From Litoditis marina (taxonomy: Eukaryota > Nematoda > Chromadorea > Rhabditida > Rhabditidae): DNA of 64,000 nucleotides. Location of the stretch: NCBI GenBank assembly GCA_964036275.1, contig OZ038434.1:13677259-13741258 (forward strand), read 5' to 3'. A program made the position numbers and the translations under genes. The notes under the pieces are model-generated. The model saw only the letters and a program-made list of their open reading frames with translations, ran no database searches and was not told the origin of the DNA. Within the stretch, counting starts at the first letter, position 1; every line of letters begins with the position of its first letter. This document shows, in pieces, positions 36,813 through 39,950 of this stretch.

Positions 36813-39800
36813 TTATAATATGAAAAGATTGGTGAACACTGTGTGATCTCCTACTGTGATTTCTACTCTAGTCACCCCAGCTATGGTGATGTTAGTACCA
36901 TTTGCCGTTATTCCTGCTTTCACAGAAGAAGTTTCTGGCATGAGTCCTAATGTTGAAGCTAGTTCCGCATTGACAACTGTCAATGAGGATCCTGTGTCAA
37001 ACATTGCTATCATAGGTCGATTGTTTATACAAATAGGAATATAAACGGGATCTGATCTGGACTCTGCCGAGACCTTGCATACTAGCGCTGTCACTAATGG
37101 GATGAACGTCAACATTTTCGCCTTTTTTACTCTAGAGGTGTTCTGTAGAACCTGTCTTTGTTCGTTACAACAATTCGTTTCCTCTTCTATTTCAATGGAG
37201 ACTTTCTCGTCTACCTTGTTTGAAGAATGTGTAAAGTTGTCTCCTGTGATCTTACTGAAACGTACTGACGGTTCCTTCTGAATTTGAAAGATGTTTTTGC
37301 AACAACATCCTTTGATGATGTTAATGATAGCATTCAATAATAACCGAAAAATTCTACATTGTACATAGGCGTAAAATAGAACTACAAATAGTAACACTGT
37401 CAAAATGAATATTACAATGGTTGTGACTATCAAATGGTCGTGAACTTCTTTCAAAACAGTTTGTTTCCCTTTTTGCAAAATTTCTAGCCCATTTCCTTCC
37501 AAGTTTTTAACTAAATCGACAGTTTCTTTTCGGATTTCATTTGTCCAAGGCTCATCTTCTCTAGACATTAATGGTTTACCATTTGAAGTCAAATAATTGT
37601 CGGCGACCGAAAGTTTTCTCATTATCATGGCAATATTAGTTGAAATTCCTGCTAAATCAGAATGAAAAATAGGTGGAGAGTTGAATACAAAATCTTGTTT
37701 TCGGTGAATATAAGGAATATTAAGATGTACTTTGGTGACATGAACTTTTCCACTAGGCGCAATCCAGTTACCGCTATTATCTTGGAAAATGCTAAAAGGA
37801 ATATGTGCGCAATCTACCTGTATGCTCCGCGGCATTAAGTCTCTACTGCCAGGTTGTAAAAAGAAAATTGAGTTTTCTACTCTAACTGGAGTGTCTGCGT
37901 AACAAATTTCTCCAACTTTATGATTTGGATAGATTTCCCCTGCTTCTACTTCTCTGCATTTGGTAATCATGAGAACGTCTCCTGCCGCTAAAGCTGTAAT
38001 ATCGTCTCTACGCAATAGAGTTCTCGCTGCACCTGTCGCGTCAATTTTGGCCATCATTTTTATAGTTTGTATCTGAAAATTGTTCAGACCACAAATTTGG
38101 TTAAACAAATAATTGAAATCTTCATGGATGGTCTCTTCAAGTTTGATCTTCAAAAATTGCATTTTCGTATTAAGTTCGAGATGTCTTTGGTCTTGTCTCT
38201 GCTCATGAGTTTTGGACTCATCATATTTCACAGGATAAATAAATGGTTGTAGTTTTCGAGCTAGGTGTACTGCAACTGGATCATCTATTTCGGATTTGAA
38301 ATATGCACTCGCTTTCAAATGTTTATTGGGAACTTGAGCTACACCCCTTTTGCGTCTAACTGTTTTCGTTCTGGAGGGATATTCAAATTGTGCTTTTCGA
38401 TTAAGTACCAGCCTATTCGTCCCTACAATTTTATTCATTTCCGTGCCATTTCTAATTCTCTCATAAAGCCACGCACTACTTCCTACCAGCCCTTCCTTGA
38501 TGATCTCCCGTGTTTTGTTCACATGTCGTAAATGTATTTTAGTCAAAAATTCGGGATCATTTCGGAAAACGTTGACCGGATGTCTACCTTCAAATTCTGG
38601 TATTGACACAAAGACTCCGTTGTCCATAGAAATAGCGTCAGATGGTAGACACCACTTATCAAGTTGGCTCTCACTGTATGTCACGTTTTTGTAGGTAAAT
38701 GCGCTTTGCGTGGTATCGACTAGGATGTGTTTTTCTGTGATGTAAGCAACATTTCCTGCTGTTTTCTCATATCTACAGATAACGTCCTTATCAATATCTG
38801 GTGTCCATATTACGGTACCATGGGTCATGATGCACGATCCTGCGCGAAAAGTGCATTTTCCCATGTCTCCAAATTGAGTTAGAGTATTTCTTCCGTCAAA
38901 AGTTGCCAGTTCGCCTTTTTCTACGTAGAAATTAGTAGTACTTTGGCATGTTGTTCCAAATAGCCATGGGTATGTGTATGAGACATCGTTTTCTGTTCCC
39001 ATCACATTTTCTCCAAAAATTTTTAGCTGTTGTCCAGCGTACTTTTTCGTTGTAATTAAAGTCTGGCAAAATTCTGGTGAAGTTGGGGTTGTATACACTC
39101 TGTCCGAATTTTGGGTGAAAACAATATGTAAATAGGACGATGTACAGATAACTCTCGTTTTGTTGAAACAGTGAAACGCTTCTCTCATTATAGGTTCTGT
39201 TCTCTCAGTGAAAATGTCCACTGTCGCCATACTGAAATGCGCTTTCTCATTGTTATCAACTTCGCATTGAATTGGTTCTGGCAATGAAACAGGCCAACCT
39301 GATTTAGAATTTCCGCACAACTGAAACTTTTTGCCTGTTAGTGCACTGCTCGGGTTTACTAAGAGTCCTACTATCATACAAACAAAAAGGGTCATTGGTA
39401 TTCCACTTTTAAGAGAAGAACCGGTATTTTGTGTTTCAATCGAGTTTATTCTCGGAGCTCGAGCAGGTGAACGAGAGCGTGAACTGTTCATGGGAGTTCG
39501 TCTCTCAAATTGTACCTGTTTATTACGATTGTTCGAATTAATGGGTTGTTGAAAGTTACTGTTATTTGAGAAAGAACTTCTGAAGGATTCTCTGTTTTGT
39601 TGTAGTGCGTCCGAGTGATTAAAACGTCCGTTGTAATTGTTTTTACCAAAAGTATTATTTGAATAGGAATTTCTATATGGGTACGGTTCTCTCTCTCGTT
39701 GTAAACTCTGGTATCTACTGGGTGGACTATTATAAAATCGACCTGCTCTCTCCCTGTTGTCGTCTCTGTTTGTGAATCTACTCTCTCTCCATGGTCCACT

Positions 39801-39950
39801 GTTGTAGTTGTTTCCTCTCATTGGTCTGTCATATCCTCGCTCTCTCACTGGGTATTCACTGTACCTGTTGGCTTGATTACCAAACTTACCTGGTTGGTAA
39901 CCGTAGTTTGAATTAAAGTAATTAACGAAATCATCATTTCTCCTAATCAT
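36813..39950 (-). CDS. Nucleocapsid-like / envelope-like glycoprotein / protease polyprotein
   Basis: 1045 residues from the first ATG; the frame is open a further 60 or so bases into the end of gag (+1 relative to gag). Residues 1-180: disordered Arg/Asn/Ser/Gly/Tyr-rich, probably an RNA-binding nucleocapsid without CCHC knuckles. About 185-204: hydrophobic signal peptide (MTLFVCMIVGLLV). About 205-835: cysteine-rich ectodomain with several N-x-S/T sites and a furin-type VRRKRG at about 531-536. About 838-865: long hydrophobic anchor, then a tail with CCCKN. About 945-962: second hydrophobic stretch (MLTFIPLVTALVCKV). About 985: retropepsin active site FDTGSS; the domain is cut by the stop and resumes in the pol frame. 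The glycoprotein resembles viral type I membrane fusion proteins in layout; I cannot assign it to a viral family. Confidence 0.85.
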   Translation of the reverse strand: MIRRNDDFVNYFNSNYGYQPGKFGNQANRYSEYPVRERGYDRPMRGNNYNSGPWRESRFTNRDDNRERAGRFYNSPPSRYQSLQREREPYPYRNSYSNNTFGKNNYNGRFNHSDALQQNRESFRSSFSNNSNFQQPINSNNRNKQVQFERRTPMNSSRSRSPARAPRINSIETQNTGSSLKSGIPMTLFVCMIVGLLVNPSSALTGKKFQLCGNSKSGWPVSLPEPIQCEVDNNEKAHFSMATVDIFTERTEPIMREAFHCFNKTRVICTSSYLHIVFTQNSDRVYTTPTSPEFCQTLITTKKYAGQQLKIFGENVMGTENDVSYTYPWLFGTTCQSTTNFYVEKGELATFDGRNTLTQFGDMGKCTFRAGSCIMTHGTVIWTPDIDKDVICRYEKTAGNVAYITEKHILVDTTQSAFTYKNVTYSESQLDKWCLPSDAISMDNGVFVSIPEFEGRHPVNVFRNDPEFLTKIHLRHVNKTREIIKEGLVGSSAWLYERIRNGTEMNKIVGTNRLVLNRKAQFEYPSRTKTVRRKRGVAQVPNKHLKASAYFKSEIDDPVAVHLARKLQPFIYPVKYDESKTHEQRQDQRHLELNTKMQFLKIKLEETIHEDFNYLFNQICGLNNFQIQTIKMMAKIDATGAARTLLRRDDITALAAGDVLMITKCREVEAGEIYPNHKVGEICYADTPVRVENSIFFLQPGSRDLMPRSIQVDCAHIPFSIFQDNSGNWIAPSGKVHVTKVHLNIPYIHRKQDFVFNSPPIFHSDLAGISTNIAMIMRKLSVADNYLTSNGKPLMSREDEPWTNEIRKETVDLVKNLEGNGLEILQKGKQTVLKEVHDHLIVTTIVIFILTVLLFVVLFYAYVQCRIFRLLLNAIINIIKGCCCKNIFQIQKEPSVRFSKITGDNFTHSSNKVDEKVSIEIEEETNCCNEQRQVLQNTSRVKKAKMLTFIPLVTALVCKVSAESRSDPVYIPICINNRPMIAMFDTGSSLTVVNAELASTLGLMPETSSVKAGITANGTNITIAGVTRVEITVGDHTVFTNLFIL

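What the first reader, a model, noticed from the sequence alone, without database searches (positions are those of the whole stretch)
36813..39950. Envelope-like glycoprotein encoded between nucleocapsid and protease
Seen: one continuous ORF runs from an Arg/Asn-rich RNA-binding-like region through a signal peptide, cysteine-rich ectodomain, furin-type VRRKRG, membrane anchor and CCC tail into the retropepsin FDTGSS motif, and pol continues after it. Known: retroviruses and errantiviruses put env after integrase as a separate, usually spliced gene. Inference: here the envelope would be made as part of the Gag-Pol-type polyprotein, which raises the question of how cytosolic Gag and luminal envelope parts are sorted. 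It may be a captured viral fusion protein.
Basis: partly seen in the sequence, partly recalled or inferred. Interest (0 to 1): 0.88.

Follow-up and report, generated by a model that had tools for sequence, protein, structure and literature searches.

The report
Worm retroelement with mid-polyprotein viral fusogen
A young nematode-type retrotransposon carries a virus-type membrane-fusion protein between its RNA-binding and protease regions instead of at the end, and relatives in other worms keep the same odd order, which suggests a retrovirus-like element built on a flavivirus-like plan.

Summary
Observation confirmed. ORF2 (36813-39950, minus strand) joins an Arg/Asn-rich NC-like region, an internal signal peptide, a Cys-containing ectodomain with a furin-type site, a TM anchor, a CCC tail and the first part of a retropepsin. 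It lies in a 12.7-kb Ty3-type provirus with LTRs identical at 369 of 370 columns, a 4-bp target-site duplication, PBS and PPT. The ectodomain matches Pfam Monjiviricetes_fusion (E 4e-17); the modelled post-furin part matches negative-strand virus glycoproteins (23 BFVD hits with E<=1e-3), and the best PDB hits are herpes gB, at weak E-values: a class III-type fusogen. Glycoprotein before protease recurs in strongylid, hookworm and Caenorhabditis proteins, so it is not a chimera. Corrections: the capsid is in a separate frame, and this copy's protease is interrupted by a frame change with 7-10 residues missing, so it is probably defective. Likely mode (inferred): one polyprotein with cytosolic Gag-NC, luminal G and cytosolic Pol, as in flaviviruses. 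Eight full-text searches showed me no description of this order. New variant of a known kind.

The parts
44800..45169 (-). 5' LTR (370 bp); target-site copy ACCT at 45170-45173
   Evidence: 369/370 identical to the other LTR; flanks read
44784..44799 (-). primer-binding-site-like stretch, TGGAGGTC...
   Evidence: directly after the 5' LTR on the minus strand
41014..44783 (-). long 5' leader with two tandem arrays (about 43007-43498 and 44067-44504)
39976..41013 (-). ORF1: Gag capsid region (345 aa)
   Evidence: PF03732 Retrotrans_gag E 2.5e-5; 40% identical to the Gag part of P0005
40014..40022 (-). A9 run at or near the Gag/NC frame change (+1 or -2 sense)
   Evidence: P0005 is one protein across the matching region
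39411..40025 (-). NC-like Arg/Asn/Ser-rich region in the ORF2 frame; no CCHC knuckle
39339..39407 (-). internal signal peptide / signal anchor (residues 182-204)
   Evidence: hydropathy
37446..39338 (-). glycoprotein ectodomain (residues 205-835)
   Evidence: 14 Cys, 4 sequons; residues 200-960 are 32-44% identical to five relatives
38343..38360 (-). furin-type site VRRKRG (residues 531-536)
   Evidence: basic sites near this place in several relatives
37758..38174 (-). class III-type fusogen core (residues 593-731)
   Evidence: PF24664 E 4e-17; gB by profile; fold
37347..37445 (-). transmembrane anchor (residues 836-868)
36813..37115 (-). F-I-P-L-V segment and first part of the retropepsin (residues 946-1045, FDTGSS)
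   Evidence: PF13650 E 8.1e-10; F/Y-x-P-x-V/I before PR in 8 of 15 rows printed
36816..36843 (-). frame change inside the protease; 7-10 residues of relatives absent
   Evidence: tblastn of P0007 and P0009
33388..36867 (-). Pol frame: end of protease, RT, RNase H, integrase
   Evidence: PF00078, PF17919, PF17917, PF17921, PF00665; frame
32841..32851 (-). polypurine tract AGAAAGGGGGA
32472..32840 (-). 3' LTR (369 bp); target-site copy ACCT at 32468-32471

Best explanation
This is a recently inserted provirus of a nematode Ty3/gypsy (Metaviridae) lineage whose envelope, a class III-type fusogen related to chuvirus/mononegavirus glycoproteins and herpes gB, is encoded between nucleocapsid and protease. 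Shown: the order, the fusogen homology, and its recurrence in other nematode elements, in some within one predicted protein. Inferred: the genomic RNA is translated as one polyprotein, Gag-NC-[signal]-G-[TM]-PR-RT-IN. The internal signal sends only the middle to the ER, so Gag-NC and Pol stay cytosolic while the ectodomain is luminal. Signal peptidase frees the G N-terminus and may leave Gag-NC tied to the membrane by the signal, as flavivirus capsid is (recalled); a furin-type protease cuts G before its central helix; the retropepsin, on the cytosolic side, cuts the G tail away, perhaps at the F/Y-x-P-x-V/I segment. This copy is probably defective in its protease. Confidence splits as identity and order about 0.95, polyprotein translation about 0.7.
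For: PF24664 E 4e-17, 61.9 bits against a cut-off of 27. A profile of five family members finds gB as the two best of four PDB matches, E 0.0098 and 0.87. Model of residues 540-868 (pLDDT 68.1; 70-88 over its residues 41-180): 23 of 124 BFVD matches have E<=1e-3, 19 of the 23 named as glycoproteins of negative-strand RNA viruses, one entomopoxvirus protein, three unnamed; best three of 33 PDB matches all gB, E 7.2e-3 to 4.5e-2. The glycoprotein profile matches 15 of 130 proteins held, 10 of them not in the profile; it lies before PR in 14 of 15, and the fifteenth, P0005, ends before PR. P0005 carries Gag-NC-signal-G, and P0018 and P0020 carry the C-terminal half of G-TM-PR-RT-IN, in one predicted protein each on contigs of at most 5.2, 5.8 and 6.4 kb. 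The last Met before the signal is about 170 residues upstream in P0005, in the capsid, and 40-50 upstream in P0019, so G has no start of its own close by there. All 9 env rows of the RT tree fall in one 19-row clade, support 100/100. Env-core and RT distances correlate over 9 elements, r 0.50, permutation p 0.008. Hydropathy places one signal before G and one TM after it. LTRs: 1 difference in 370 columns.
Against: This copy does not encode the polyprotein in one frame: Gag/NC and PR/RT are each split. No RNA or protein data; the DNA of relatives was not seen, so introns in them are not excluded. A strong donor-like site CAG|GTAAGTT lies in NC coding at 39889, and predicted proteins P0023 (NC to RT) and P0007 (Gag to mid-G) skip the region. 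A 1:1:1 supply of Gag, G and Pol would be unusual for a virion. The tree tool's own count for the env label was 8 changes, no better than shuffles (160 of 500 as low), since rows without this region count as env-free. Of the 10 profile hits outside the profile, P0015, P0018, P0019 and P0024 match PF24664 only below its cut-off, and P0021 and P0125 do not appear for it; they rest on the family profile. P0026 (C. brenneri) has PR without G upstream; it is not in the tree. VIA Z for gB is only 3.8-5.0, no better than unrelated long-helix matches. The N-terminal half (205-530) has no usable model. Other copies in the host genome could not be read.
Confidence: 0.75

Rival explanations
1. Splicing decides: the unspliced RNA or a spliced mRNA makes the envelope, while another mRNA removes it and joins NC to protease, so Gag-Pol and envelope come from different messages.
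For: Nematode-like donor CAG|GTAAGTT at 39889 in NC coding. Predicted proteins P0023 and P0007 skip all or part of G. Cer1 makes a regulatory protein by splicing (PMC10309623, abstract and passages). In this copy a Met (residue 186) lies at the start of the signal's hydrophobic core, and an acceptor-like site of middling score (7.8) lies before the signal at 39580.
Against: With a rough acceptor matrix of my own making, the three best sites in 33300-39900 fall inside G (38073) or Pol (34723, 34315), at 10.7-12.9 bits; sites near the signal (39580, 39321, 39232) and before the protease (37278, 37255) score 7.8-8.8. Gene models that skip coding sequence may be software artefacts. P0005 and P0019 have no Met close before the signal. 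No RNA was seen.
Confidence: 0.18
2. The envelope is a non-functional passenger or remnant that the element no longer uses.
For: This copy has two frame changes, one with missing protease residues.
Against: The G frame itself is open throughout in a young insertion; signal, TM, core residues and basic site recur in distant relatives; env and RT distances go together.
Confidence: 0.06
3. Assembly chimera or chance join of a viral glycoprotein and a retrotransposon.
For: None found.
Against: Same order in Ostertagia, Oesophagostomum, Ancylostoma and Caenorhabditis proteins; paired LTRs with target-site duplication around the whole.
Confidence: 0.01

Closest known systems
Atlas virus and kin (Belpaoviridae, hookworm; PMC9094657, passages read)
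   Same: Nematode retroelement with a viral fusogen like those of RNA viruses, encoded inside one long polyprotein without stops or introns (2828 aa).
   Different: BEL/Pao-type; Gag-Pol-Env with Env last; fusogen is phlebovirus Gn/Gc-like (class II recalled).
Anakin (mosquito BEL/Pao with chuvirus glycoprotein; PMC7642597, passages read)
   Same: Chuvirus-type glycoprotein captured by an LTR element.
   Different: BEL/Pao, not Ty3; mosquito, not nematode. The passages I saw do not state the place of the glycoprotein.
Jingchuvirales glycoprotein EVEs (PMC10084718, passages read)
   Same: That survey already lists such glycoproteins in Nematoda and beside Gypsy fragments in insects.
   Different: It describes the nematode ones as flanked by simple repeats and reports no clear capture by Gypsy or Copia elements.
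Tas of Ascaris (cited in PMC9094657 and PMC7642597)
   Same: Nematode element whose env resembles herpes gB weakly (PMC9094657).
   Different: BEL/Pao-type with the envelope-like protein downstream of the polyprotein (PMC7642597 passage); not tested here.
Cer1 of C. elegans (PMC10309623, section 7 and passages read)
   Same: Nematode Ty3-type element with one long polyprotein.
   Different: Gag of 690 aa with a predicted zinc-finger NC; no envelope described before PR; its extra spliced product CERV, whose C-terminal half comes from the end of the element, is required for genomic RNA export.
Errantiviruses (gypsy of Drosophila)
   Same: Ty3-type element with an Env.
   Different: Env likely from baculovirus (PMC12440569 passage) and after integrase (recalled).
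Flavivirus / alphavirus polyproteins (recalled)
   Same: Works like them: RNA-binding capsid, internal signal, luminal envelope, TM, cytosolic enzyme.
   Different: No descent implied; no sequence relation tested.

Membership tests
Ty3/gypsy (Metaviridae) LTR element | paired LTRs, target-site duplication, PBS, PPT | tested here: met
   LTRs 369/370 identical, ACCT duplication, TGG-type PBS, AGAAAGGGGGA
Ty3/gypsy (Metaviridae) LTR element | PR-RT-RNase H-IN domain order and Ty3-type RT | tested here: met
   Pfam order; clade-mate P0025 matches solved Ty3 Gag-Pol best, E 1.3e-112; tree
Errantivirus | Env encoded after integrase | tested here: not met
   G lies between NC and PR; 547 bp follow Pol before the 3' LTR, with no stop-to-stop frame above 91 codons
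Belpaoviridae with captured Env (Atlas, Anakin, Tas) | Env after Pol and BEL-type Pol | tested here: not met
   Order; Pol matches Ty3/gypsy-type proteins
Class III fusogens of Monjiviricetes/gB type | sequence profile above curated cut-off | tested here: met
   PF24664 61.9 bits against cut-off 27; the gB family PF00606 only below its cut-off (19.5 against 43)
Class III fusogens of Monjiviricetes/gB type | long central helix followed by crown-like beta domain | tested here: met
Class III fusogens of Monjiviricetes/gB type | bipartite hydrophobic fusion loops in the N-terminal domain | tested here: inconclusive
   whole-ectodomain model failed, pLDDT 32.8
Functional retroviral-type envelope | surface display, incorporation and fusion | not testable with these tools
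   needs protein work
Cer1-type elements | extra spliced product (CERV) with a C-terminal half encoded at the 3' end of the element | tested here: not met
   no stop-to-stop frame above 91 codons between the Pol stop 33388 and the LTR at 32840; shorter exons not excluded

The most novel reading that the evidence does not exclude
An old nematode retrovirus lineage that runs on a flavivirus-like plan: one polyprotein in which an internal signal peptide both delivers a class III fusogen and tethers Gag-NC to the membrane, replacing a matrix domain (Gag starts of P0002, P0005 and P0075 have no Gly2; P0019 has one without the S/T of the N-myristoyl pattern). The slot between NC and PR would be a standing cassette: the Strongyloides relative P0075 also has a signal-like and a TM-like stretch there, but an ectodomain with no fusogen match, as if the tenant had been swapped.
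Probability: 0.35. Interest if true: 0.85.

Novelty: new variant of a known kind. Interest (0 to 1): 0.72.

Why it matters
Retroviruses and env-bearing LTR elements normally put env last, so the amount of Env can be set apart from Gag and Pol. Here a fusogen of negative-strand RNA virus type sits between NC and PR, in elements from several nematode groups. That gives a direct test of how cytosolic and luminal parts of a retroelement polyprotein can be made from one chain, suggests a matrix-free way to bring capsids to membranes, and adds a Ty3 lineage to the record of RNA-virus envelopes turning retrotransposons into possible viruses.

Tried and rejected
Rejected: assembly chimera (relatives, target-site duplication); errantivirus or BEL/Pao membership (order, Pol type); a phlebovirus Gc-like envelope (no such Pfam hit for ORF2 at E up to 10). 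No Rfam family reached its gathering score in the window.

Rows dropped: the RT tree (67 rows) leaves out P0125, P0026 and other proteins whose RT match spanned at most 330 positions, and of the rest only P0003, P0007-P0075 and three chosen outgroups were kept. Of the 10 rows without a glycoprotein match in the 19-row clade, 8 show no protease domain and so do not cover this region in full (P0012, P0013, P0014, P0016, P0022, P0023, P0039, P0058; P0023 has Gag joined to RT), P0017 has a TM but no G core, and P0075 has signal- and TM-like stretches with an unrecognised ectodomain.

Full report
What is there. On the minus strand a 12.7-kb LTR element occupies 32472-45169. Its LTRs (369 and 370 bp) are identical at 369 of 370 columns, and it is flanked by ACCT on both sides, with a TGG-type primer-binding site and a purine tract. 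It is therefore one young insertion. It has three long frames: Gag capsid (39976-41013), ORF2 (36813-39950; open from 40025) and Pol (33388-36723; open from 36867). Between the 5' LTR and Gag lies a 3.8-kb leader with two tandem arrays.

The order is a family trait. A protein search with residues 200-960 found five proteins among 7257 candidates, four of them named from Ostertagia ostertagi and Oesophagostomum dentatum. A Pol search found 197 proteins with E<=1e-30 among 7991 scored, 120 listed. In the 130 proteins then held, a glycoprotein profile matches 15: the window's own, 4 used in the profile and 10 others. Of those 10, P0015, P0018, P0019 and P0024 reach Pfam PF24664 only below its cut-off, and P0021 and P0125 do not appear for it. 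In 14 of 15 the glycoprotein lies directly upstream of the protease; P0005 ends before it. Named sources include Ancylostoma duodenale (P0015, P0019), A. caninum (P0125), Caenorhabditis remanei (P0024) and C. japonica (P0025). P0005 runs Gag-NC-signal-G, and P0018 and P0020 run from the C-terminal half of G through TM-PR-RT-IN, each as one predicted protein on contigs of 5-6.5 kb; I did not see their DNA, so absence of introns is inferred. An RT tree of 67 rows puts all 9 env-bearing rows in one clade of 19 with full support. The tool's test of the env label on that tree is uninformative (8 changes, 160 of 500 shuffles as low), because 8 of the other 10 rows show no protease domain and do not cover this region in full. 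P0026 and P0023 (both C. brenneri) show Pol without G and are told as misses. Env-core and RT distances correlate over 9 elements (r 0.50, p 0.008), as expected if both travelled together.

Defects of this copy. Relatives that are continuous show where the window's frames part. Between Gag and NC the change lies near a run of nine A (40014-40022); it could be a programmed or slippage event or an indel. In the protease, homology to P0007 and P0009 stops and resumes in another frame at 36816-36843 with 7 and 10 residues missing, most simply a small out-of-frame deletion. The copy is young but probably cannot make a working protease or Pol by ordinary translation.

How it most likely works (inferred). 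With one internal signal before G and one TM after it, a ribosome making Gag-NC-G-PR-RT-IN would leave Gag-NC and Pol in the cytosol and thread only G into the ER, as in flavivirus C-prM-E or alphavirus structural polyproteins (recalled). Signal peptidase would leave Gag-NC on the membrane through the signal. Gag starts of P0002, P0005 and P0075 lack Gly2, and P0019 has Gly2 without the S/T of the myristoylation pattern, so such a tether could replace a matrix domain. A segment of type F/Y-x-P-x-V/I lies before the protease in 8 of the 15 rows printed and is a candidate cut site. In P0005 and P0019 no Met lies close before the signal, which speaks against separate initiation; splicing to an upstream start is not excluded. 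A strong donor-like site at 39889 and predicted proteins that skip the region keep the splicing rival alive; acceptors scored with a rough matrix of my own do not frame G well.

Known or new. Viral fusogens captured by LTR elements are known: phlebovirus-like in hookworm Atlas virus, where Gag-Pol-Env is one polyprotein with Env last (PMC9094657, passages); chuvirus-type in mosquito BEL/Pao Anakin (PMC7642597, passages); gB-like in Tas (cited in PMC9094657). A survey of Jingchuvirales glycoproteins already lists some in Nematoda, flanked by simple repeats, and states that no clear capture by Gypsy or Copia was found (PMC10084718, passages). Cer1 lacks this arrangement as described (PMC10309623, section 7). 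Eight full-text searches gave no paper that, by the titles and abstract starts listed or the passages read, describes an envelope between NC and PR; the library lacks most subscription journals and nearly all preprints, so this is a limited claim. I file it as a new variant of a known kind.

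Noticed in passing
P0075 (Strongyloides papillosus), residues 424-1025: Sister to the env-bearing clade in the RT tree; it too has a signal-like (424-452) and a TM-like (1008-1025) stretch between NC and PR, but the ectodomain, partly coiled-coil-like by eye, matches no Pfam fusogen. Possible swap of tenant in the same slot.
   Followed up: partly
P0017 and P0020: Two retropepsin motifs in tandem (188 and 343; 311 and 468) between the TM and RT.
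   Followed up: no
41014-44799: Unusually long (3.8 kb) leader between 5' LTR and Gag with 85/66-bp and 94-bp tandem arrays; 94 bases of it resemble 61300-61396 at 72%.
   Followed up: partly
39889: Nematode-like splice donor CAG|GTAAGTT inside NC coding.
   Followed up: partly
17157-19875, 49420-53334, 56063-59620: Large arrays of 25-bp satellites, two with related units (TTAACATAGAGCGCGG...), one with AGGGAGAACTCTCGCTGTCTATGTT.
   Followed up: no
13379-14816 and 22974-23321 (minus): Exon-like pieces with GT10 fucosyltransferase similarity, presumably host genes; the last piece is just under the Pfam cut-off.
   Followed up: no
26868-27341 (plus): ORF with weak SURF4 similarity, under the curated cut-off.
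   Followed up: no
literature: PMC7642597 pairs Tas with phlebovirus and Cer with herpesvirus envelopes, while PMC9094657 says Tas resembles herpes gB; the former seems to have the two exchanged.
   Followed up: no
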